From assembly GCA_020152595.1 (NCBI GenBank), contig JAIGNY010004456.1:186001-250000 (forward strand): a stretch of DNA of 64,000 nt. The letters are read 5' to 3'. Below are positions 1,294-63,671 of this stretch, piece by piece. Position 1 is the first letter of the stretch; each line of letters starts with the position of its first letter. A program made the position numbers and the translations under genes. This stretch comes from Chiridota heheva (taxonomy: Eukaryota; Echinodermata; Holothuroidea; Apodida; Chiridotidae). The notes below the pieces were generated by a model. The model was not told the DNA's origin and did not search any database. It saw nothing but the letters and a program-made list of their open reading frames with translations.

Positions 1294-2511
1294 TATGGTG
1301 CGGCATCACGGAATATATTCGGTAAAAAAAATATGTCTACTGTAATAATATATGAGCCCTAATACAAATATCCCTTAAAAACAAATATGTACCTGTTGCT
1401 CTAAAAATATATACATGTTAAAATATATGTCTACTTATTGTAAATATATTTCTTAAATAATCATATATGCTGCCCTAAAAATATATGTATGTTTAAATAT
1501 GTCTCCTTATTGTACAAATGTTTCTCAAATGAATATATATGTTGCTCTTTCCTTATTGTAAAATGTTTCCTTATTGTAAATATATTTCTTAGAGAATATA
1601 TGTTGCTCTAAAAATATATACATGTTAAAATATATGTCTACTTATGGTAAATATATTTCCCAAATAAATATATATGTTGCTCTAAAAATATATATGTTTA
1701 TAAAAATATATTTTGTCTCTAAAACTCATTAATGTGCTTGCTTGAATATATTGTACATATACAAAAAAAAAAAAAAAAACTTTTCCTATGAAAATATATT
1801 GCTTGAAGCAATATGTATTTGCTACCTAGCTAAATATATATGTTCTTTAGCACAAGTTTATTTTCTACATGAATGTTTGTGTATAAATTGAAAAAGTGTT
1901 CCTAACCAAAATATGTTTCCTAAATCGAAAAAAAAAACAAAATACATGTAAACCAAATATATGTTCCCATTTGGAAAGTTTTATATATTCTCCCTTTTAG
2001 AAAAATGGCTACTTAAAAATACCTAATAAATCTTTTCCTGAAACCAGGGAGTTGCTAAAGTCTAAAACTAAATGGACTGCCCTTCCAAAAAACACATTCG
2101 CCACGAAAATATATTGCTACAGAAAAATATATGGCTATGTGAAAAAACTACATGTTGGTTAACTGAGCATGGATAATGTGCATACTTTGGTAGAGGACCT
2201 ATCAACCAAAAACATACTTGTAGTACAATAGAAGACAAATTTCATACAATTGGACCACCATGAGCTGAAATATTTACCACAAAACAAGCTGCATGGAGTG
2301 AGATATCTGATACTCTTGAGACTGAACAGACACATGGTCAACATGAATAGGGAATAACCCTTTTTATAAATTGTTGTTAAAAGGTGCCTGGTGTATAAAA
2401 TAAAATCATCAAATGAAATAAAGAATTTAGAGCATGGAGTATATATCTCATGAATAAAGTAACAACAAATGTAAACCGAACAGGATTAAACATTTGTGAT
2501 ATTCTAAAACT

Positions 2512-4040: not shown

Positions 4041-4441
4041 TTTGTACTCCCATGGGTAGTACAATCCACCAATATGCCTAAAGAAAGATAGCCAAGCCTG
4101 TCTCAACATCTGTTTGTACTCGAGCTCACATGTGCAGTGCAATCCATCAAAAGTCACAGAGCTATAGTGACCCTGATAGCTATTTCCCCCACCATGCTGT
4201 ACGCTAAAGGAGATGAGATCAGCAACTTCATGGATTGCTTTTTTTTTTTTTGATCCAGCGGGTAGTAAAGGCTACCGAATTGGCTACTAGGGGCAGTGAT
4301 AATGTTATAGAGTATCCCTGCTAGGGGGATGTAATTTTAAATGCATCTGCATGCTGGCGTAAAGATAAATGCAAATGTGTTACCCTTAACTTTGTTATAC
4401 CCAATTTATTTCAACCTGGTAACCGGAACCATAGCTTTCAC

Positions 4442-6557: not shown

Positions 6558-8054
6558 CAAAAGGATGATTATTAATATTGTTAATGATCGAGCTATAATC
6601 CCGAGCAATGATTGATGTTGTCCAAATTGTCTTTCCTGATCATATTTATTCACAATGTATTATACAGTTTCAGACTTGCGGTTTCAATTGGACTGTTTTT
6701 CAGTTTTACTTTGTGGCAATTGCTATACATCACTGGTATATATCAATTCAAGCAAGAAATATTTCGACAAGCGAAACACAAGAATAGGTGAACACTTTAT
6801 GTGCTCCAATTCTTAAATATAGTAGTATACTAATATCAATTAAAAGATGAATGTGGATAGTTTATAGATGACAGCAAAATGAAAATTTGTATTTCAAAAA
6901 TGCATGCACAAATATACAGTAGGTATATGTATAGTTACATTAATTTACACAGTTTGAACCACAAAAAAAATCCTGTCAATGCAGATTTACGATTTTGCAA
7001 TATTTTTGCCTTAATATACAATTTCTTTCTTGTGTGGGGAGTCCCACATTGACTTTTGATGTCAACCTCTAAAATGTAGGGTGTCAAAAAACAAAAAAAA
7101 GGGGTGGGGGGGGATCCAACCATCATTTTTTGATACACCTTTAAGTTGCATCTTGGTTATAAGTGATGCACCATTAGGGTATGTATTAGGGGGAAGCATT
7201 TGTTCCAAGTTAAAGGCCATGTTCAAATAATAGAAATTTAAGTTGTGTTTTATTTCATTGTCCTAAGTCAGGGAAATTCCCTTTTCCCCCAAATCCCACC
7301 TACAGTCACCATTGTTATAAACTTGATTTTAACATCTCTTTTCCAAATGCAGAATGTTATAGTTGTGGTTGATGCTTATTATCACTTTGCCCACAAAATT
7401 GTGCTCTGATAATTTCCTACAGAAGCTGGAAGAGTTTAAAAGCTAACAGAAAAGTTCATGTGTGGTTCACTTGCAATAGCTTGATAGCAAACGTTTTTAT
7501 GTAGTACATACTATGTACAGAACACAGGTCTACCTTGTGCTAATGATATTTCCACTAAAAAATATTACCCCATATCTTTCCCTTAACAGACACATATTCC
7601 CCAAAAGGTGTTTTTTGCATTAAATTTAGAATATGACCTCATCGAAAGGCATTGCTTGGCTTAATACCAAACAGTGGGCTTGTTATGACATGTTGTTACA
7701 CAACCATAAAACATGTGAAAGAGAGGTTATTTGCTTGAGGTGGCAAGACACATTGATCACACCTACAAGTATTCTTTGACGTGATATTAATTGTGTAGGC
7801 AGGGAGCTGCTACAAAGTAACAGCTCCCTGGTGTGGGCATTTACAACTGGAGTGTAGAAAAATCAAATTCCCAAGTTTTGGAATAGTACAACATTTGAAT
7901 TTGAACTTCAATTTTCCATGTAATTTACAAAAAGTGAAGACGTAACATTGATTGCTTTTTTTAAAGACCTGTAAACCTTTGTGAAAAATGGGTTCTTTGT
8001 TGCTTTTTTATTCTTCTTCGAATATGATTTGAAATTTATTTTTCAGTATAATAC
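6558..8054. other. Intergenic or intronic stretch without recognised gene
   Basis: Nothing coding was recognised. The only structured item is the 31-bp palindrome at 7800-7830, listed separately. If the minus-strand Src-family gene continues leftwards, this and all sequence left of 23735 lies in its second intron or beyond. Confidence 0.5.
7800..7830. mobile_element. 31-bp palindromic insertion with 7-bp flanking duplication (candidate)
   Basis: The arms CAGGGAGCTG (7800-7809) and CAGCTCCCTG (7821-7830) are perfect reverse complements. After one mismatch, three more inner pairs (TAC/GTA) surround an AAA loop. The flanks GTGTAGG (7793-7799) and GTGTGGG (7831-7837) match at 6 of 7 positions. 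The length of 31 bp and the CAGGGAG outer arm are shared with the insertion at 45241-45271, whose insertion status is clear because it breaks a retrotransposon frame. Confidence 0.5.
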
Positions 8055-8234
8055 TGACCTCCATGGTGTAGTGTTTAATGCTTTGTCCTCTCACCCGCAC
8101 GTCCCGGGTTCGAATCCCAGTGGATCTGCAACCAGTGACTTCACAACTAGTTATCAAAGGCCGTGGCCATCTTGATATAATGTCCAGCAGTGGATGCTTT
8201 CGGGACGTTAAACCTTGCTATGCTATGCTATGCT
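8055..8234 (+). mobile_element. tRNA-derived SINE (family A)
   Basis: The left end is tRNA-like. It has an A-box-like TGGTGTAGTG (8064-8073) and a perfect B-box GGTTCGAATCC (8107-8117) at normal spacing, together the internal RNA polymerase III promoter. The tract CTCTCACC before the B-box resembles the anticodon arm of tRNA-Glu(CTC), which is inference. A non-tRNA body follows: ATCAAAGGCCGTGG (shared with 24483-24774), then TTCGGGACGTTAAACC, and a 3' tail of TGCTA repeats. No clear target duplication is seen. Confidence 0.8.
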
Positions 8235-13470: not shown

Positions 13471-13473
13471 TCA

Positions 13474-14552
13474 ATCGGAAGCTTGTGAATTGGCCTTTCT
13501 GACAGTATAATCGGAAGCTTGTGAATTGGCCTTTCTGACAGTATAATCGGAAGCTTGTGAATTAGCCTTTCTGACAGTATAATCGGAAGCTTGTGGATTG
13601 GCCTTTCTGACAGTATAATCGGAAGCTTGTGGATTGGCCTTTCTGACAGTATAATCGGAAGCTTGTGGATTGGCCTTTCTGACAGCATAATCAAAAGCTT
13701 GTAAATTGGCCTTTCTGACAGTATAATCAGAAGCTTGTGAATTGGCCTTTCTGACAGTATAATCGGAAGCTTGTGAATTGGCCTTTCTGACAGTATAATC
13801 GGAAGCTTGTGAATTGGCCTTTCTGACAGTATAATCGGAAGCTTGTGAATTAGCCTTTCTGACAGTATAATCGGAAGCTTGTGGCTTGGCCTTTCTGACA
13901 GTATAATCGGAAGCTTGTGGATTCGCCTTTCTGACAGTATAATCGAAAACTTCTGGGTTGGCCTTTCTGACAGTAAAATCAGAAGCTTGTGGATTGGCCT
14001 TTCTGACAGTATAATCGGAAGCTTGTAGATTGGCCTTTCTGACAGTATAATCGGAAGCTTGTGGATTGGCCTTTCTGACAGTATAATCGGAAGCTTGTGA
14101 ATTAGCCTTTCTGACAGTATAATCGAAGCTTGTGGCTTGGCCTTCTGACAGTATAATCGAAGCTTGTGGATTCGCCTTTCTGACAGTATAATCGAAAACT
14201 TGTGGGTTGGCCTTTCTGACAGTAAAATCAGAAGCTTGTGGATTGGCCTTTCTGACAGTATAATCGGAAGCTTGTAGATTGGCCTTTCTGACAGTATAAT
14301 CGGAAGCTTGTGGATTGGCCTTTCTGACAGTATAATCGGAAGCTTGTGAATTGGCCTTTCTGACAGTATAATCGAAAGCTTGTGAATTGGCCTTTCTGAC
14401 AGTATAATCGGAAGCTTGTGAATAAGCCTTTCTGACAGTATAATCAGAAGCTTGTGTATTGGCCTTTCTGACAGTATAATCGAACTTGTGGATTGGCCTT
14501 TCTGACAGTATAATCGGAAGCTTGTGGGGTGGCCTTTCTGACAGTATAATTT
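13474..14552. repeat. 36-bp minisatellite, ~30 units, with 7-unit higher-order repeat
   Basis: The unit reads TATAATCGGAAGCTTGTGAA, then TTGGCCTTTCTGACAG on the plus strand. Since 36 is a multiple of three, two minus-strand frames are open, giving an apparent 12-residue repeat protein; I regard this as a by-product. Variants are ordered: a run of seven units (GAATTAG, GGCTTGG, GGATTCG, the AAAACTT variant, the AGTAAAATCA variant, GTAGATT, GGATTGG) occurs at about 13840-14090 and again at about 14095-14335. Units at 14122-14170 have lost single bases. No splice sites or flanking domain support translation. Confidence 0.9.
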
Positions 14553-32837: not shown

Positions 32838-34981
32838 ATCGTTGAATATGTTCTTTGACCTACTAGTCTGCGTCCAGGCGGTCTTATTATCATTTTATAA
32901 TAATAAAACTCCGTGGAGTTTCCAAAACTGCCGCATGATTTTACTTTGTTCCAAAAATTACATAACTGCATAAACTGTTTATGTCTAGGAGTCTATTTAC
33001 CGTGTGGTAGGCCTATCAAAAGTTGATATAATACAATAACATATGAAATGAAGGCTACGTCTCGGTGCCCCTCCAATAATCTAAGGTCTCTGGTCCTCAA
33101 GTTACCGTGCCCACTCTGAGGCTGACGGTGTTTACACGGCGTTGGTCAGAACAGGGCTTTTTAATACACTAAGTGAGCAGAAGGCATGGTCGTCCGACTT
33201 GGAGGTAGGGGGTTAGCATGGCCAGGGCGTAGCTGCAGGTTGAAATGCCACAGGAGTAATGGGGCAAGCCAACCCAAACCAAAGATGTTTGATAACATTT
33301 GTATATGTTTATAAGCAGTTTTATCATCAGTAATCATTGGAACATAAGTGGGCGGGGCGTGGTGCATATAATTCGAGGGGGAGGGGGGGGGGGGTAGGGA
33401 AAACTGCATTCAGCTATGTTGGAACTAGAGGGGGGAACATGTAAACAAATAAACAGTCCATCAGGCGGCAGGTATTTTTGACAAAAATAAAATACAATTT
33501 TTTATTTAGCTTATTTCCAACCGTTTTCATTTTAAAGTTATTACTGTATTAGTCCAGGAGAAACTTGAATTTGATGAATTAATATGCATTCTTAGATTCC
33601 AGACGAAAGAATTTAAGAATTTCTGCTATTCTTTGTTTTAATCTTACTTCGCAATGCTAATTTAAACTCTGCATCTAAAATAATTAACGTTCATTTGATA
33701 TCCAGTAATTAATTAAAGGATTGATTTGATGAAGGTCAAAGTGTGACAGTCCTGACAAAAAGAGTTTTCACTTCACTGCTTAATGAATCTAACCGTTTAA
33801 TTCCTATTCTATCTAAATTTTAAACTTTGCTTGCTTTGCATCATGTCGAAACATATTTAGCTTTTTATTTACATGGGTAATGTTGCTTTTTGGAGGCTTA
33901 CAATGCACTAACATTCCATGTTAGATCTAAGTGAATCTTTTATTTCGGGTTTCTACCTGACTAATTTGAGAGCACTTTGGTTTTAAATATTCAAATATGA
34001 TTGTCAAATCATCTAAAACTGAAAAACACTAGAAATATAAATAGCGCAGCTTATTTTGCAAAAATCAAATTGTGGCATTCAAACGAATCTATGATTTTAT
34101 CCACGTCTAATCAAAGAGCTATGTAGAAGCTCTTTGGTCCAATTATCTTCCTCTTTCTACCATAAGCATCGCCAACCCTGTCAATGGTCATGGTGCTCCT
34201 GCAATATCATTTCAGTCGTTTTAAGCAGGATTACGACCTCGTACATGCACGATGCCGAAGAAGTTGGTGTAAACTCTTGATAACTTTCAAAAGGAAGGCA
34301 CAACCGCTTTCACATATTGCGCTTTGCAAAATTGAAAGTGCTCCCCAATAAGAGGGGAGGAGGATGTCAAGTGTTCATTATTTGGGAACCATTTTGCTAT
34401 GGTTGCCTTAAATCAATAGTCATGTCGGTGCTCCAAGCTCTTGTATACTTGACTCTCAAGTTCTGTCTTATCGATTTGGTAAATCTGCGCTATTTCGTTA
34501 AAGTCTCGACCACTTCTGTGTTCCTAAGAATGGTAAGATCATTCTCACGAAATCTGGATTTAATTTCTCCAACCACATGTCTGAAGGTTCGATAATCCGA
34601 ATGTTAGGGTTAGTGTTATCCTTAAGACTATTGAAACTTTGGACCATTCAGCCTTCGGACTATCGAACTTTTGCACTATTGGGCCCTCGAACCAGAAGAC
34701 TGGCACCACCCAACCTGTCTATTCATCCAGAACAGAAATAACGTATTGGCTGTATAGAAAGAAGCTTTCAAAATTCATAAATCTTGATACAAAGTTTACC
34801 GATGTTGAATGACAATCCGACGGCGCGCACATGTCCAGTTATCGGCCACAAGAACTAAGTCAATTTCATCACATAGGTCATCTGATGTTGTACTTTGTAA
34901 CGTTTTGCCCGAGTTTCATTTTCCTAAATGATCTTTCACTTTTATATGCAATTCAACATAACCATTGTGGTCGAACGTCGG
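31829..34981. other. Gene-free stretch with microsatellites
   Basis: It holds (AAT)n at 32269-32325, (CT)n at 32810-32837, a G-run near 33380-33400 and a block of TTCGGACTAT-type phrases at 34585-34690 that recurs at 41155-41240. The poly-Asn open frame over 32269-32325 is a translation artefact. No exon was recognised. Confidence 0.5.
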
Positions 34982-42506: not shown

Positions 42507-45500
42507 ACCCCACACCTCACCTCACCTAGTCGCTTCAGGCCTCCTGGCCCATAAGGTTGCAGAGCACTCTCTCCACTGGACTCTGTTATTTGCCACTTGT
42601 CTGGCTTCTGCCCACGAGCTCCATCCCATCAAACTCCTCTTCTTCTCGACTGTCCTTCTCCAGGTCGTTCTAGGACGACCAACTTTCCTTTTCCCCTCTG
42701 CTTTCCACGTCATAGCTGTCATACAGTGCTTAATAGTGCTCTCATGCGCAACACATGACCAATCCACCTCAACCTTCTTTTTACTTCAGTGCTGATTTTG
42801 TCATGTTTAGTGACTCTCAGTATTCCATCGTTAGATATTACATATGACCATCTGATCTTCAAAATTCTCCTGAAACATTTGTACATAAATGTATCCAGCT
42901 TTTTATCATCTGCTACATTAACTCTCCATGTCTCGCAACCATACAAGAGTGCCGCACTGGCAGACTTAACAAGAGAGTTAAGCAGTCGTATTTTTGTATA
43001 CATTGAGAATATGCTTGACTTCCATATCTTATCTAATTTCATAAATGCTACTCTTGCTTTAGAGATTCTGTTTTGGATATCTTGCTCGCCACCACCTTAT
43101 AAGCTTACTGTTGCACCAAGGTATCTGAACTTGTTTACTTCATTTAGTTGTTGGTTATCGATAAAAACTTAGTTTGCACATTTGCTGTTAACTTTCATGA
43201 GCTTTGTCTTATCCTTATTAATTCTTAGCCAGTCTGTGCAGCTTACTGATTGAGCTTGCTCACTTTGGTTTGCATGTATGATATGCAGATGAAAGTAGAG
43301 CGATATCATCAGCAAAATCTAAATCCTCAAGAGTTGACATAAACTTACATCTAATTCCATTTCTGTTATTATCAGTCGTTTTTCTCATCACCCAGTCTAC
43401 CACCATCAGCAAAAGAAACCCTGACATTACATCACCTTGCTGTACACCACTTTTGATTTGAAACCATTAAGATTCCACACCATCATCTAAAACTACACAT
43501 TCACTGTCTTCATATAACGCTTTAATCAAACATATTATCTGTTGGGAATACCATAGGCTGCCATTATTTTACGGAGGCTTTCTCTGTGTACTTAGTCAAA
43601 CGCCTTCTTGAAGTCAACAAAGGCGATACATATGGTTGACTGCCATTTAGCCACCTGTTCTATAATGTTGCGCAGGATGAAAATTAGCTAGTTGGTTCTC
43701 CGAAGTTCCTCTTCTAAATCCAGCCGTCCATCTCTCATCTTACTGTCAACACCGTTGCTAATTCTGTCGATTAAAACTCTTCCAAATATTAATTTGTTTG
43801 GCATGGATGCTAAGGTTATTCCGCGCCAGTTATCGCATACAGTAGTTTACTTTTCTTATGTATTTTTGTTATCAGTCCTTGCTTCCATGATTTTGGTATA
43901 ATGTCCTCCCCCCTCTCCCCCCCCCCCCCTTATACAATTCTGAACAGCTCTTCAAGCCATACTACTGATGTGCATATATCAGCTTTTAACAACTCGGCAG
44001 TTATCAGGTTATATTAACCTTGCCTGCAGCTTTGTTATTCTTTAGCTTCATCAATGTCCCTTTGATTTCACTTCTTGTAATATAACATTTCGTCTATTTC
44101 AGGGTCACATGTTAAGTTAGAAACTGAAAAACAGGATATGGTCTATTCAGTATCTTCTCGAAATGCTCTTTCCACCTCTTTCTTTTTTTCTTTTTTATCC
44201 GTTAATAAATCCCCGTCCCTGTCTCTTATAGTACTCCCAACCTTGGTCCTTTCATTGCAAATTGTTTTGGTTATCTTGTAGAGCTCTCTCATTCTGCCAT
44301 TACTAGCTACTTCCTCTACAGATGTAGCAAGGTCGTCAACCCACTTTCTTTGATCTCTCCTTAAGCTTTTCTTCACATCTTTGTCTTTTGCAGTGTACTT
44401 AGCTCTCATAATATCTTTAATTCTAATTGACTTGGCATTCTCAATCTTAACGTTCAGCTGTTTTCTCTTTTCAGCACATTTCCAACTTTCTCTGCTGATC
44501 CATAGCTTTTGGTCCTTCTTATTTGTACCAAAGGACCTTTTTAGCAACCCCATTGTTTACCACTTCAAATGTCTACCACTTACTCTCAACTTCTTCAATG
44601 TTATCAGGTACTTCAGTCTCACCACATCAGTCTTGTAAAACTTCATATCTATTTCGTAGTTCAACCGAAAACTCTACTCTGATTGCTGGTTGTCAGGTTG
44701 TTGTAACTTGATGGTATCATACTTGGGTCGACATGTCTTTGTTATCGGTTTTCCTTTCAGTTTCAATCGGATCCTGGTCCGTATCAAGTGGTGATCACTT
44801 GAAATGTCAGCCCCTCTCATCACTCTTGTGTCTAATATGGAGGTTCTGTGTTGCTTTGTTACAAACACATGATCAATTTGGTTCTTTGTCCTCCCTCCTG
44901 GGGAAGTGCAGGTCTGTTTATGAATGAGTTTATGTGGAAAAATTGTGCCAGTCACCAAAAAATTGTTGATACCACAGAAGTCCAAAAGCCTTTCACAATT
45001 AGCATTCCTCTCACCAATGCCACGCCTTCCAATAACATTATCATAATCATCATTATTACATCCTACTTTGGCATTCAAGTCGCCCATTATGATTAATAGG
45101 TCATGCTTGGAAACTCCATCTACTAGGGCTTGTAACTGATCATAAACAGCTTCCTTGTCTTCATCAGTTGCATCAATTGTTGGAGCATAAACTTGAATGA
45201 TTGACAATTTAATATACTTTGAGAAAAACCTTGCGTAAATCTAAGAGTTGGCATTAAATGCCAACTCCCTGCGTAAATCAACCCCTCATTTATAGGTTTC
45301 ATTCTAATAGTGTCTTTTCAGCTTTCTTTGATAACATGAATTCAACTCCCTGATGATGCATTTCATCATCTCTGCCCGAAAATAAAATACTTTCGGCAGT
45401 AGTCAGCTTGACTTTACTAAAGCCCGTCCACCTACATTCACTTATACCAAGAATGCCAATATTATACTGCTCCATCTCTTTGGCGAGTTGAGGTACTTTT

Positions 45501-45970
45501 CCAATTGAAAAGAGCGATCTTACATTCCAGCACCCTATAAGAGTACTCAGGTACTGCTGTTGGGTTTGGTAATTGACGTTATCAACCCATGAGCTTCCTT
45601 GTGGCTTTCACCCATTGGCGTCATGTTATCCACAAACCTCAGATTGTCATCTTCAGGATTTTGGATCGTCATACTTCCAAACTCAATAATATTACCAGCA
45701 TTAGCTAGTGCACTTGCAGTTTCCGTAACAATTGAATGAGCTGAATGGGTTGTTAGTCCATTGCAACAGGTTTTGTTTCAGGGTTTTCCTTCCCTTAGCC
45801 AGAGCCTTGTAAGCCTAGCACCGTTTAGAACTAGTTACCAGGGGGAACCATAATGACGAAGTAAGGTTGACTTGGGTGAACTACGGGTCATCGACAGGCT
45901 ACTAATTTTTACGTTTCACCCACCAAGGTGAGCTATTCGAACCCAACACCACTGGCTGTGGTGCCGGGCG
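42507..45970 (-). pseudogene. RTE-type non-LTR retrotransposon, near full length but broken
   Basis: Reading on the minus strand, the endonuclease begins with IGCWNVRSLF near 45535, continues through GISECRWTG and GDLNAKVG (near 45080) to SSDHHLI (near 44790). The reverse transcriptase keeps a KKAFD stretch (near 43610), SGVQQGDVMSGF (near 43440) and DLDFADDIALL (FADD at 43304-43315). The C-terminus has LLYGCETW, RRLRWIGHVLRM and GKRKVGRPRTTW, followed by a GGTGA-type repeat as 3' tail at about 42507-42525. The RRLRWIGH and GKR..GRP.TTW motifs are typical of RTE-like elements. Stops, frameshifts and the 31-bp palindromic insertion at 45241 make it inactive. The region upstream of the endonuclease (to about 45970) is stop-rich but contiguous. 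Confidence 0.85.
45241..45271. mobile_element. 31-bp palindromic insertion inside the RTE endonuclease
   Basis: The core GAGTTGGCATT/AATGCCAACTC is an 11-bp perfect inverted repeat around one base; the outer arm reads CAGGGAG on the minus strand. CGTAAAT lies directly on both sides (45234-45240 and 45272-45278), and the direct repeat can be read as 10 bp (TGCGTAAATC) because the end bases coincide. Insert plus one duplication is 38 bp and shifts the frame; ignoring those 38 bp the endonuclease frame runs through. It is therefore an insertion, not original sequence. Confidence 0.75.
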
Positions 45971-48143: not shown

Positions 48144-49735
48144 TGCATAACCTAGACCCCAACAAAGCCTCAGGTCCTGACCAAATACCACCATGGTTTC
48201 TAAAAGCACATACTGATGACCTCTATGAAATTCTAACTGATCTCTTTCAAACCTCTGTCGATAATGGTACTATCCTAACAAGTGGAAAAAGCAAACATAT
48301 GTAGTGTTTTTAAAAAGGTGATAAACAAAACCCAGCTAATTATAGACCTATTTCCCTCACCTGCGTTTGTAGTAAAATCCTTGAGCATATAATCCACTCA
48401 CATGTGATGAAATTCCTTGATGAGCATAATATCTTAACTGATTTACAACATGGCTTCCGTGCAAAAAGATCGACTGAAACACAACTCCTCTTAACAATAA
48501 ATGATATCTCTAAACAAATTGACCAAAACAGTAACGTCTCTATGGCTATTCTTGACTTCTCAAAAGCCTTTGATAAAGTCCCCACCAGCGCCTGTTATCC
48601 AAACTTTCCGCCTATGGCATTGATGGAAATCTTCTGGCCTGGTTTGCATCATTCCTCAACAACCGCATCCAGCGTGTTGTTTTGCGGTGAAATCTCTGAT
48701 TCTAAACAGGTTTTATCTGGTGTACCACAAGGTACTGTCTTGGGTCCATTACTTTTCCTCTTATATGTAAATGACATCCCTGATAATATAAACAGCACAG
48801 TCAGACTGTTTGCTGATGACTGCCTTGTGTACAGAACAATTGATAACCCCTCTGACCAACAAATCCTCCAAGATGATCTTAACAAACTTGAACAATGGCA
48901 AAACAAATGGCAAATGAATTTCAACCCCTCCAAATGCTACATCTTGTCAATTTCCTCTAAGAAATGCTTCAAATCACCTGTTTATACCTTATGCAACCAG
49001 CCACTAAAACATGTCAACTCCCACCCATACCTAGGTGTTGAAATTGATAATAAACTTAGATGGGATAAACATATACATAACATAACCAAGAAAGCTAACT
49101 CTATACTTGGCCTTTTAAGCGTAACCTCTCAAACTGTCCCACCGACGTTAAATCCACTGCTTATAAAGCTCTAGTCAGGCCAGTACTTGAGTGCGCATCT
49201 GCAGTCTGGGACCCCATCACCAGTGCGATGTGGATAAACTTGAATCTATTCAAAGGAGCAGCCAGGTTCTGTATGGCAGACTACTCTTATAAATCTAGTG
49301 TAAAAAACATGCTTTATAAATTAGATTGGCCCCTGCTTAAAACAAGACGATACAACACCCGGCTACATATGCTATATAAAATCAATAACAATCTTGTCGC
49401 CATCAATAAAGATGAACTTATCCCCACCGTTAGAACTAATACAAGAAATAATCATGACCTTAATTTCCAGGTTCCCTATGCTAAAAAGAATGTATATAAA
49501 CGCTCCTTCTTCCCTCACACACTAAAGAATTGGAATGCTTTACCGTCAGACATTGTTCATGCACTAAGTCTCAACTGTTTCAAAGCTAAACTTACTAACA
49601 CCTGTATTGCTAACTAGTTTTTTTTTTTATGTTATTTTTTACAAATACTTTTTACGCTCGGTTGGCGTTCATGTCCTCTTGAAGGATTTTTGCCGACTTA
49701 ACCGATTCAGATTCAGATTCAGAAACATACATACA
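48144..49735 (+). pseudogene. Non-LTR retrotransposon fragment (L2/Jockey-type reverse transcriptase)
   Basis: It is 5'-truncated, beginning within the reverse transcriptase at DPNKASGPDQIP (about 48152). Then come NYRPISLTCVCSKILEHII, HGFRAKRSTETQLL, LDFSKAFDKVP, SGVPQGTVLGPLLFLLYVND (about 48718) and LFADDCLVYR (FADD near 48809). The C-terminus ends near 49617, followed by a T-run, a 3' UTR and a short GATTCA repeat (49702-49722). A frameshift pair at about 48585-48690 and stops near 48300 and 49172 inactivate it. Endonuclease is absent. Frame is well kept elsewhere, so the insertion is not ancient. Confidence 0.85.
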
Positions 49736-51309: not shown

Positions 51310-52584
51310 AAGTTTTCAGATAAGACAGATTAGATACTCTCAATGGTAGAGGAGGTGGTGTTCTATTGTTTGTAAATGACAATTTTAATTGCATAGATAT
51401 GACTGCTCAAGTTTCTTTTGGTTTCTCGAATTGCCTACTGTGGGAGCTTATTGTTGATGGTGATGTTGGTAGTTCAGTGGTTGTTGGTGTTGTATATAGA
51501 TCACCAAATTCTTGTCCTGAAAATAATCAGAAATTGCTTGACTGCTTTAGGAAAGTTGCTTCTAGGAGGGTTATTGTTTTTGGGGACTTTAATTTTCCAG
51601 ACATTGATTGGAATCTTTGCATTAGTGGTCCACATGGTAAAGATTTTCTGGAAGTTGTATCCGACTGCTTTTTCACCCAGCATGTGTTGTTTCCCATGCG
51701 TGGTAATAATTGTCTTGATTTGCTTTTCAGTAGTGAAGAAAGTATGGTTAGAAATGTGCTAAGTAGAGGTAAGGTAGGGTGTAGTGATCATGACCTCATT
51801 AGTTTTGATCTGTATTGTTTCACAAAGGTTTCTCCAGCTAATAAACTAGTCTTAGATTTTAAGAATGCTGGCTTTGCCACACTTTAGGATAATTTGTTAT
51901 TAGATTGGACTTCTTTGTTATGTGGCTTAGATCCTGCTAAAGCATGGGATGTTTTCCGAACTAAAGTTTTGGATGGTGTAAATAGGTTTGTCCCTTTAAA
52001 GAAAGTATGTAGGCATAATTGGCCAGTGTGGATGTCTCGGGAGGTTTTGCAGACTGTTTGGGAAAAGAAGAAGAAGTGGCGTTGTTATAAAAAGCAGTGG
52101 GTGTCCTGCGGAGCTTGCTACTTATAAAGATTATGAAAAGTTCACTATGGGTTTGATAAGAGATACTAAAGTGTCTTAAAAAAAACGTTTGTCCAAAGAG
52201 GTTAAGATTAATCCTAAGTCGTTTCACTCTTATGTTCACTCAAAGCAAAAAACCAAGGAGGTTGTTGGTCCCCTTTAGGGTAATGATGGTGTTACTATCA
52301 ATAGTGGTAAGGATATGGCTGAGTTTTTGAATGACTACTTTGTATCTGTTTTTACTAAGGAGTCCCTTGCTGATGATGTTGTGGAGTATCTTAGTGTGCA
52401 CTCTCCAGTATCATTAAGGATGTTGATTTTTCAGTTGATGTTGTTTCTAAGAAGTTAAAGGGGTTTGATTTTAAATAAAGCACCCGGTCCAGATTGTATA
52501 CATCCTGCTGTTTTACGTGAGTGTTCTGATGTTCTTTCTGTTCCCCTGAGTATTATCTTTTCACAATGCTTTGATGTTGGTGTT
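51310..52584 (+). pseudogene. CR1-type non-LTR element, 5' part (outer layer of nest)
   Basis: It opens in the endonuclease (NGRGGGVLLFVND near 51340). GVVYRSPNS, FGDFNFPDIDW (near 51580) and SDHDLISFDL (near 51786) are the conserved endonuclease blocks. A linker follows, and the start of the reverse transcriptase with KAPGPD..HPAVLRE near 52478-52520. Stops and small frameshifts are present (for example 51885, 52275). The reading breaks at 52584 and resumes at 54456, because another element with an 11-bp duplication (52574-52584 and 54445-54455) lies between. Confidence 0.85.
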
Positions 52585-60310: not shown

Positions 60311-60658
60311 CTGTGCCAAAGCGGTTCTGTTCCAAGTTGGTTCTGTGCCGAGTTGGTTCTGTGCCGAGTTGGTTCTGTGCCGAGTTGGTTCTGTGCCGAG
60401 TTGGTTCTGTGCCGAGTTGGTTCTGTGCCGAGTTGGTTCTGTGCCGAGTTGGCTCTGTGCCGAGTTGGCTCTGTGCCGAGTTGGCTCTGTGCCGAGTTGG
60501 CTCTGTGCCGAGTTGGCTCTGTGCCGAGTTGGCTCTGTGCCGAGTTGGCTCTGTGCCGAGTTGGCTCTGTGCCGAGTTGGCTCTGTGCCGAGTTGGCTCT
60601 GTGCCGAGTTGGCTCTGTGCCGAGTTGGCTCTGTGCCGAGTTGGCTCTGTGCCGAGTT
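60311..60658. repeat. 16-bp minisatellite in two homogeneous blocks
   Basis: The unit is CTGTGCCGAGTTGG(T/C)T. Two decayed units (60311-60342) and six T-type units (60343-60438) are followed by about 14 C-type units to 60658. Sixteen is not a multiple of three, so all frames cycle and stay open on both strands; the repetitive proteins are artefacts. Single decayed units occur in inverted form at 58758-58790 and near 58905. Confidence 0.95.
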
Positions 60659-61092
60659 GACCTTTTTCAATAGGCATGCGTTCATGCCATAGATTTGGGC
60701 ATGAATATTTGTGCTTGGTCAATGTATATGACGTCAAAGTCAAAAGCTTCTGCTACATGAAGGACCTCGAGAAACGAAGGCGAGTATCACAATTTTGGAC
60801 CTTAAGAGCACTACTAGATGGGTACCTGAAATTAATACATTAAGTAAATAAACAAATGCATTTAAAATGTTTCAAAACTTCCAAAAACAATCAAGGAACT
60901 AGCTTGATAATTCTGCTGCACACAGCCTGCAAGTCATGACACCAACAAATTTTAAAGCTAGAATTTCTTGAACTGCAGTTATTAGCATCATAAAATTACC
61001 AGCTGAGTTATATATTAATATAAGCCCTTTAATTTTTCACAGACTAATTGACTAATTTTGTGAGGTAATTTTCAATTGTTGTTCTGTTCCAG

Positions 61093-61680: not shown

Positions 61681-63671
61681 TTTTGTCTGGCATATTTGTT
61701 TAAGAAGCCCTAGATTTTTGGCGTATTTTGTAAATTTGCCATCGTATATACAGGGCACTGTGTAATGTACAGAGCACTGCGAGCTAGCGAAGCTTGCAAG
61801 TATTGTTAAGACACACACTTGTGTAGGCCTGACTTGCTAAAGTGAATGAAAATTGTGCTTAAAATACCAAAAACATTAAAAAATCAGACTATTATTATCA
61901 TAGAATAATATTAAGAAAAAGTTATCTCCCAATGAAATTTTGGTTAACAATCCAAAATGAAATGAAAAAAACTTTTGTTTTTCGTATCCAAACTTTCATG
62001 AAATTTTAGTGAACTTTGACCAATTGTCAATGATAATATACTATTGAGATCTCGAACATGCCTACTTCTTTACAGTATAGTAACTTGACTTGCAGATTGT
62101 GATCACTTCACAGATTCACGATCAACACAATACAGGAGGAAAGTAGAATCCTAGCTAATAATATCGTTGACAATTGACAGCCTGCATTCAAAACAACATC
62201 AAAACTTTCACGTACACTGTACAGTGTATGTATAGGGCCTATGTACTAGCCTATATATGTGTTTATGTACAGTACTTGCACGGACATGTTGAATCATTCG
62301 GCCACTGGTCTCATAGATGTGTCATTTTTCTTTTTATTTAAGAGTAATTCAAAATCATTTTTGTGTGAAATAAAACTTTCAATAGCATTAGAGAGGTAAG
62401 ATTTTCATGATTTTCATTTAACTTAATGAAAAACTCTGGTGTAAAATTTCACATGCTATTTCTATATTTTAACGACGCAGGTACAACATGTGTTGTAAAA
62501 GATTTCAGCCATGGCGTAATATACGACAAATTTGTGGTTAACGCGAACCCTGTTTCTTTACCCTTGCACCATCTTATACTATATTATAACCTCATAGCAA
62601 TGCCACAAGACTAACACATCTCTGTACACAGACCAAACAATTAACCATTCATAAATAACCTCTTTTGGCATATCTGACTAATTGTTGAAAGTGCTGTTGA
62701 ACACAAACAAAGAATCCCAAACTCATGCGACTACATGTACTTTAATGTAGTTACTAGGCAGGGGTTGAATTTTAATTTTCACACCAACTATTCCATGGAA
62801 CAGTGCTTTTGTAAAAAACACTCTTCCAGATCAAATTTCACTGTACCAACATTTTCATCAATAAAAAAGCACATTCCTTTCTTTAAATTGAACTTAATAT
62901 ATCCCTTTTTTGTCATAATATACCTGTAAGAGAAACAAGAAATAAATAATAGTTCTAAGTCTGCTGTGCACATGTCAAAATAATAAACCAAGTAAGGGTG
63001 TAAACATATCATATGTCTGGGGGAAAACATAATGGAACTATTGACAGTTGCATTAGTTCACACATGCAAATACAGTATCAGGGATGTAAGTGAGACATAC
63101 AAAATTCTTTTGGAAGATTGTAAATATGTAGCACAAATTATTACATCTTGCAAACGGCGTGGGGAGGTGGGTAAAATTTGATCATACCACGTGCTGGAAA
63201 ATATATTTTCCCAGCAAAAAATAAATAAAAAGGCATTAGGGAGAAAAATGATTTCATGGGGATCTTTAATCGTAAAAATATGCTTCTAACAAAATTTATG
63301 AGCTGATTTGTATATATTATAATGTGTGGGTCAATGGGTAATTCTAACAGCTTCTGGCCGATTATGGAAGTTATACAAGTTACACAGTCAATTTTACCAC
63401 ACCACGTGGTGGGAACCCAAATTTTGTCAAAAAAACATGGGGTCACACGCAAAGTTTATTTTAATGAGGTCTTGCATCTCACTTTAATTTCTCAGAATTA
63501 TCACGCACACATATCATTTTTTCCTAGTTCTTTATTCTACATATGGAGCACTTTTCAAGCAAGCATTAGTATCCCCTACATATATATGCCCTGTTAGTAA
63601 ATAAATCCCCAATTAGGCTTAGCCCAGGGTCCTGGAAGCTGTTATTTTTACAGCTCTGTGGTAAGCCTGAG

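What the first reader, a model, noticed from the sequence alone, without database searches (positions are those of the whole stretch)
45234..45278. 31-bp palindrome inserted in a retrotransposon frame with 7-10 bp duplication
An insertion of about 31 bp that is nearly all inverted repeat is far shorter than known MITEs. Its insertion status is unusually clear: it carries flanking direct repeats and shifts an otherwise continuous endonuclease frame by 38 bp. The origin could be extreme internal deletion of a TIR transposon, a hairpin excision-reinsertion product, or an undescribed micro-element mobilised in trans.
Basis: partly seen in the sequence, partly recalled or inferred. Interest (0 to 1): 0.75.

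Follow-up and report, generated by a model that had tools for sequence, protein, structure and literature searches.

The report
Scar of a departed P transposon
The 31-base palindrome is most likely not a tiny jumping element but the scar left when a large P-type DNA transposon jumped out and the cell glued the broken ends together, and the same genome carries over a thousand palindromes built the same way.

Summary
The insertion is real: 31 bp at 45241-45271 between exact CGTAAAT repeats (8-10 bp if edge matches count), splitting an RTE endonuclease frame that readable relatives keep whole. The 1.1-Gb source genome has 1118 sites of CAGGGAGYTG-N(0-30)-CARCTCCCTG but 52 with N(31-60); reversed controls 0. 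Of 45 sites checked, 38 have a 7-bp flanking repeat matching at 6 or 7 positions. The copies look like two stubs of one transposon end joined at varying points within about 20 nt; three keep 18-21 nt of one end and 4-5 nt of the other. A 29-kb element with the end type of this insertion, an exact GTTGAAC duplication and P-superfamily transposase domains exists in the genome. P transposase leaves 17-bp overhangs (passage). Best explanation: end-joined excision scars of P-superfamily transposons. Such footprints are known; their build-up into a genome-wide short-palindrome family, with stubs nearer 20 nt, seems new. Cleavage was not tested, and 13 of 20 one-armed loci showed no nearby second duplication.

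The parts
45234..45240 (.). left copy of 7-bp target-site duplication CGTAAAT (8 bp if the next C is counted)
45241..45271 (.). scar A: 31 bp; on the minus strand 15 nt of a transposon end (CAGGGAGTTGGCATT) joined to 16 nt of the opposite end, the latter with 3 differences at positions 2-4
   Evidence: end type of the 29-kb element
45272..45278 (.). right copy of the duplication CGTAAAT
44674..45240 (-). RTE-type endonuclease frame downstream of the insertion (Exo_endo_phos_2, E 5.4e-07)
45272..45560 (-). upstream part of the same endonuclease frame, with one in-frame stop
7793..7837 (.). scar B: 31 bp CAGGGAGCTGCTACAAAGTAACAGCTCCCTG at 7800-7830 between GTGTAGG and GTGTGGG (6 of 7)
34105..34143 (.). 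scar D: 25 bp CAAAGAGCTATGTAGAAGCTCTTTG at 34112-34136 between GTCTAAT and GTCCAAT (6 of 7)
63625..63660 (.). possible degraded scar C, part of its interior alignable to B (0 of 500 shuffles scored as high); flanks CTTAGCC and GTAAGCC agree at 5 of 7 by eye
4287..4327 (.). possible scar: CAGTGATAATGTTATAGAGTATCCCTG at 4294-4320 between exact CTAGGGG repeats; arms match at 7 of 9

Best explanation
The palindrome is an excision scar (footprint) of a P-superfamily DNA transposon. A long element with ends CAGGGAGTTGGCATTAGA... inserted into the retrotransposon copy and duplicated 7 bp (shown for a 29-kb relative elsewhere; inferred here). Its transposase later cut it out, cutting one strand at the element's tip and the other about 20 nt inside, so each broken chromosome end kept a single-stranded tail of transposon-end sequence (inferred from known P-element chemistry, which gives 17 nt). 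End joining, often at 1-4 nt of microhomology, fused the two tails after variable trimming (supported by some of the junctions). Because the two tails are inverted repeats of each other, the product is a palindrome of at most about 40 bp between target-site duplications. It needs no function and no mobility of its own.
For: (1) 1118 palindromes at total length 20-50 bp, 52 at 51-80 bp, reversed control 0 in both; of the 50 distinct places listed, 49 are 40 bp or shorter and one is 41. (2) The 7-bp flanking repeat is 7/7 in 27 of 45, 6/7 in 11, 5/7 in 1, 3/7 or fewer in 6; among CA..TG palindromes, seeds left out, repeat length 7 gives 17 hits (4 from one tandem array), length 6 gives 5, length 8 gives 2, length 9 gives 10. 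(3) Asymmetric copies: 18-21 nt of one end with 4-5 nt of the other and the duplication still present (L112 6/7, L115 and L116 7/7). (4) In the TTACTTTG class the long arm follows consensus to about nt 20, then diverges, though the inverted repeat of the 29-kb element agrees at 31 of its first 33 positions. (5) Both arms are of one element type: position 8 is T-A in 35, C-G in 13 and discordant in 2 of 50; positions 11-14 agree within a copy at 87 of 132 against 46 per cent between copies. (6) Of 57 rows with a class-diagnostic arm, 19 overlap by 1-4 nt at the join, 5 join cleanly and 33 have extra bases; four forms found at more than one locus (21, 27, 32 and 34 bp) all carry an overlap. (7) Ungapped empty sites exist for L043 and L072. 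(8) The 29,056-bp element at C187:61520-90575 has this end type, an exact 7-bp duplication and P-transposase domains PF21787 (5.2e-17 and 7.7e-07), PF21788 (2.2e-07) and PF12017 (1.5e-4, just under its cut-off). (9) P transposase leaves 17-bp overhangs (PMC11368186, passage); end-joined footprints consist of overhang sequence between target duplications (PMC3878927, passage).
Against: The known P-element stagger is 17 nt, here about 20. Of 20 loci with one long arm, 13 show no 7-bp repeat of 6/7 or better within 60 bp; flank loss, decay or unrecognised longer elements could each explain them. Of 21 matches checked in the 51-80 bp class 5 have a duplication: L081 and L082 keep 39-42 nt of one end, longer than a 20-nt tail, and L084, L089 and L091 carry extra sequence. 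The arm cap is bounded by the 21-nt reference strings used, so the cap rests. Element A's outer right end differs at 3 positions. A source was found for one of the four end classes used. The second long copy (C418, 20.7 kb) lacks matching flanks. The target motif nTnnnAn resembles the hAT motif about as much as Galileo's GTATTAC. Identical forms at different loci would also fit mobility.
Confidence: 0.82

Rival explanations
1. A family of 21-41 bp elements that are themselves mobilised in trans by a P- or hAT-like transposase (micro-MITEs).
For: Exact 7-bp duplications at 27 of 45; identical forms at different loci with different duplications, e.g. a 32-mer at L039 and L058, a 27-mer at L047 and L066, a 21-mer in either orientation at L044, L061 and L069.
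Against: Variable junctions, copies lacking most of one end (L112, L115, L116), recurrent forms sit at overlaps, and one studied transposon needs far more DNA at its ends: Hermes, a hAT element, is severely impaired with 144 bp of its right end (PMC10368747, passage). A 31-bp duplex could hardly bend to bring both tips together (inference).
Confidence: 0.1
2. Long elements that inserted and were then reduced in place by internal deletion or aborted gap repair, without completed end-joined excision.
For: L081 and L082 keep 39-42 nt of one end; aborted gap repair is a known source of internal deletions in P elements (recalled).
Against: Deletions of this kind should leave a wide spread of sizes; instead 1118 are at most 50 bp and 52 are 51-80 bp, and conserved end sequence stops near 20 nt in the class looked at.
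Confidence: 0.06
3. A local template-switch or end-joining error at this one site that happened to build a palindrome.
For: The RTE itself carries CAGGGAGTTG at 45343-45352, about 70 bp away.
Against: The same end sequence, size and 7-bp duplication recur across the genome; the nearby match lies in codons of a conserved stretch of the RTE protein.
Confidence: 0.01

Closest known systems
Drosophila P-element excision footprints repaired by end joining
   Same: Transposon-end stubs between target-site duplications after a cut placed inside the end (recalled, with passages); P-superfamily transposase
   Different: About 20 nt rather than 17 nt retained, 7-bp rather than 8-bp duplication (8 bp: passage), over a thousand palindromes in one genome, and a 29-kb source element rather than 2.9 kb (passage)
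Galileo (P superfamily, Drosophila)
   Same: 7-bp duplication, some 8-bp, and a P-superfamily transposase (PMC4168063, passages)
   Different: Galileo copies have long inverted repeats; target consensus GTATTAC versus nTnnnAn here
hAT MITEs (CAGGG-type ends recalled; NTNNNNAN 8-bp target)
   Same: Start of the ends and T..A target preference
   Different: Duplication is 7 bp; hAT excision makes hairpins on the flanks (PMC3878927, passage), so long end stubs are not expected

Membership tests
P-superfamily transposon (source element C187:61520-90575) | P transposase domains: HTH, RNase H-like fold, GTP-binding insertion | tested here: met
   PF21787 E 5.2e-17 and 7.7e-07, PF21788 E 2.2e-07, PF12017 22.6 bits against a cut-off of 23; solved P transposase only at E 0.074. 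The PF12017 genome search listed two other, broken places and not this one
P-superfamily transposon (source element C187:61520-90575) | 7-8 bp target-site duplication and terminal inverted repeats | tested here: met
   GTTGAAC on both sides; 31 of the first 33 end positions identical
P-superfamily transposon (source element C187:61520-90575) | THAP DNA-binding domain at the transposase N-terminus | tested here: inconclusive
   Not among the matches of the 18 frames scanned; weak zf-AD and RAG1_imp_bd matches instead; no exon model was made
P-type excision footprint | Both target duplications kept around stubs of both ends | tested here: met
   38 of 45 with 6 or 7 of 7 matching, 7 of 45 not; arms follow end consensus
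P-type excision footprint | Stub length set by the stagger of the cut | tested here: inconclusive
   Conservation stops near 20 nt, sizes end near 40 bp; two loci keep 39-42 nt
P-type excision footprint | Transposase cleaves about 20 nt inside on one strand | not testable with these tools
   Needs biochemistry
hAT superfamily MITE | 8-bp target duplication | tested here: not met
   7 bp fits 27 of 45 exactly; shifting the edge by one base extends the match in only 16 (left) and 11 (right) of 45, about what chance gives
MITE (any superfamily) | Both inverted repeats kept in every mobile copy, with homogeneous length | tested here: not met
   Lengths 21-41 bp in 50 listed; L112, L115, L116 keep 4-5 nt of one end

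The most novel reading that the evidence does not exclude
Tens of thousands of short palindromes in this animal-like genome are a fossil record of germline double-strand breaks: each marks a place where a P-superfamily transposon, some of them about 29 kb long, inserted, left, and was sealed by microhomology-mediated joining of 20-nt tails. Scars far outnumber surviving elements, so short palindrome families in other genomes, now unannotated or filed as MITEs, may be repair products rather than transposons.
Probability: 0.6. Interest if true: 0.85.

Novelty: new variant of a known kind. Interest (0 to 1): 0.72.

Why it matters
Natural excision scars with defined ends and a target duplication, repeated over a thousand times, would let one read germline end-joining outcomes (trimming, microhomology, filler) directly from a genome, date bursts of transposon loss, and count insertion plus excision rather than surviving copies only. 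It also warns that very short palindromic 'MITE families' can be products of repair. The ten text searches run here listed no paper whose title or abstract start describes such a genome-wide scar family; apart from passages of four papers only search listings were seen, and most subscription journals are not held.

Tried and rejected
hAT micro-MITE: my first reading (CAGGG ends, apparent 8-bp repeat); dropped when the duplication proved to be 7 bp and one-sided stubs appeared. Local template switch from the nearby CAGGGAGTTG in the RTE: dropped. Bacterial and viral collections: 36 GTDB stretches match CAGGGAGYTG-N(9-13)-CARCTCCCTG, 13 of 36 with a T-rich or A-rich flank as in terminators and 2 of 36 with a 7-bp repeat by a loose rule; viral contigs 0 (the pattern was one base too long). 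A first repeat scan without gaps gave 0 at repeat length 8 and 1 each at 7 and 9, and so missed A at 8. A motif-free scan of the window at repeat length 7 gave B and D, 2 against a mean of 0.28, with 2 of 60 simulations as high: weak by itself. A looser motif-free scan of 274 kb was noisy, with lengths 5 and 9 as rich as 7 because of tandem repeats. PF12017 hits at L121 and L122 contain stops; one CAGAGAGGTG and no matching partner was found nearby. Rfam and tRNA scans of the window: 0. Long pairs of the same ends with duplications were not found within 1.5 kb in the window nor, a tandem array and two weak pairs apart, within 4 kb in the loci then held. Never answered: exact count of the 32-mer, count of CAGGGAGTTGGCATTAGA, PF21787 genome-wide, and the CATGGAG sister family. 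On re-checking, the loci without a nearby duplication are 13 of 20, not about half as I first had it; I lowered the main confidence from 0.85 to 0.82 and raised two rivals by 0.01-0.02 for that.

Full report
What is there. The window holds a 31-bp palindrome at 45241-45271 between exact CGTAAAT repeats, inside the endonuclease frame of an RTE-type retrotransposon. Relatives of the frame that could be read there lack it: 21 of 120 listed proteins, found by a simple motif; 98 did not fit the motif and one fitted elsewhere. In one hundred simulated windows the longest repeat flanking such a palindrome was 7 bp, against 10 here. A 31-bp palindrome at 7800-7830 and a 25-bp one at 34112-34136 share the end motif and have 7-bp flanking repeats with one mismatch. 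With the end motif and a 7-bp rule, the window gives these three and nothing longer up to 1.5 kb; 0 of 400 permuted motifs gave any within 60 bp, and simulated windows gave 0.01 on average. The motif was loosened after seeing the third copy, so that test is partly after the fact; a motif-free scan gave 2 against 0.28, as high in 2 of 60 simulations.

Genome-wide. The source genome has 1,100,099,931 bases in 3744 contigs. The pattern CAGGGAGYTG-N(0-30)-CARCTCCCTG, which is its own reverse complement, occurs 1118 times and its reversed control 0 times; with N(31-60) it occurs 52 times, several of them nested or tandem by eye. One search listed 50 distinct places; flanks of 44 of these 50 and of one window copy were checked: 7/7 in 27, 6/7 in 11, 5/7 in 1, 3/7 or fewer in 6. 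The target is nTnnnAn, T and A at 85 per cent each in 31 exact duplications read on both strands. Without assuming the CAGGGAG motif, CA..TG palindromes with flanking repeats in 274,137 bp number 17 at repeat length 7 (4 from one tandem array), 5 at length 6, 2 at length 8 and 10 at length 9, seed copies left out; sister ends such as CATGGAG, CAAAGAG and CATAGAG appear. Less the tandem array and a background of a few, that is roughly one per 25-30 kb, hence some tens of thousands in the genome; the sample is mostly neighbourhoods of known copies, so this is only an order of magnitude.

Why a scar and not an element. The copies look like two stubs of one transposon end, facing each other, joined at variable places. 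In 20 loci chosen because one arm held an exact 18-mer and the other did not, the long arm stays on consensus to about nucleotide 20 and then diverges. L112, L115 and L116 keep 18-21 nt of one end and 4-5 nt of the other and still carry the duplication, 6/7, 7/7 and 7/7. In 7 of the 20 a repeat of 6/7 or better lies within 60 bp; in 13 it does not, as expected if trimming ran into the flank, but also as expected of decay, rearrangement or longer elements. One search collected 67 rows with a duplication; they include rows of one tandem array (L040), several of one cluster (L100) and a few misread ends. Of 57 with a class-diagnostic arm, 19 have 1-4 nt of overlap at the join, 5 join cleanly and 33 carry extra bases, through filler, mutation or wrong class. 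The reference strings were 21 nt long and made from the same data, so longer arms could not be seen there. The two arms of a copy match at position 8 in 48 of 50, and at positions 11-14 in 87 of 132 comparisons against 46 per cent between copies, so both stubs came from one element type.

The source. Of 21 matches checked in the 51-80 bp class (20 stretches, chosen by eye from the 52), 5 have a duplication of 6/7 or better. Two of these, L081 and L082 (57 and 56 bp), share an interior and have different exact duplications. A 32-nt search with that interior found 10 places, among them two inverted pairs. The pair at C187:61520-90575 bounds 29,056 bp with GTTGAAC on both sides; the pair at C418 bounds 20,730 bp, its ends 195 and 199 of 200 identical to those of C187, but its flanks do not match. 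Inside C187, about 2.8 to 6.1 kb from one end, lie P-transposase domains: TNP-like RNase H (5.2e-17 and 7.7e-07), the GTP-binding insertion (2.2e-07) and the P HTH (1.5e-4, just below its cut-off). The frames are split and no gene model was made. L081 is 39 nt of one end plus 19 of the other; window scar A is 15 nt plus 16 nt of this end type with three differences at the outer right end.

Mechanism. P transposase makes breaks with 17-bp overhangs (PMC11368186, one passage), and end-joined footprints are overhang sequence between target duplications (PMC3878927, one passage). That the tail stays on the flank because the second strand is cut inside the inverted repeat is recalled. hAT excision puts hairpins on the flanks (same paper, passage) and would not be expected to leave such stubs. 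Shown here: the insertion, the 7-bp duplication, the stub anatomy, and a P-superfamily element with these ends. Inferred: that scar A's own parent was of this family, the near-20-nt stagger, and the joining route.

Limits. One of four end classes was traced to a source. Several genome questions did not complete by the server. Copies were taken from the start of the contig list, not at random.

Noticed in passing
L132:3750-5225 (-) (C187 transposon): The N-terminal part of the P-type transposase frame matches RAG1 importin-binding (PF12560, 2.4e-05) and zf-AD (9.1e-05, under its cut-off) rather than a THAP domain; a RAG1 chain also appears at E 0.094 in the structure list.
   Followed up: no
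L040:877-1530: A palindrome end with its GATAAAG duplication has been amplified into a tandem array, mostly with a 57-bp period.
   Followed up: no
L053:7804-7836, L050:7875-7902, L059:6748-6783: Sister palindromes with CATGGAG or CATAGAG ends and exact 7-bp duplications, suggesting further P-type families.
   Followed up: partly
G000 C418:94013-114742: A second 20.7-kb copy of the source transposon whose flanks do not form a duplication.
   Followed up: no
window 13473-14550 and 60326-60659: Tandem arrays of 36-bp (30 copies) and 16-bp (21 copies) units that are open in more than one frame.
   Followed up: no
window 8040-8230: A tRNA-like promoter motif (recalled) near a repeat (8120-8230) also seen in L046 and L072, perhaps a SINE; L072 carries a scar at the matching place and the window copy reads across it without a gap.
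   Followed up: partly
window 48314-49617 and 51324-51887: Further non-LTR retrotransposon pieces: reverse transcriptase (RVT_1, 5.2e-29) and endonuclease.
   Followed up: no
window 2045-2074: CAGGGAGTTGCTAAAG... with no recognisable partner end or duplication; perhaps a one-sided remnant.
   Followed up: no
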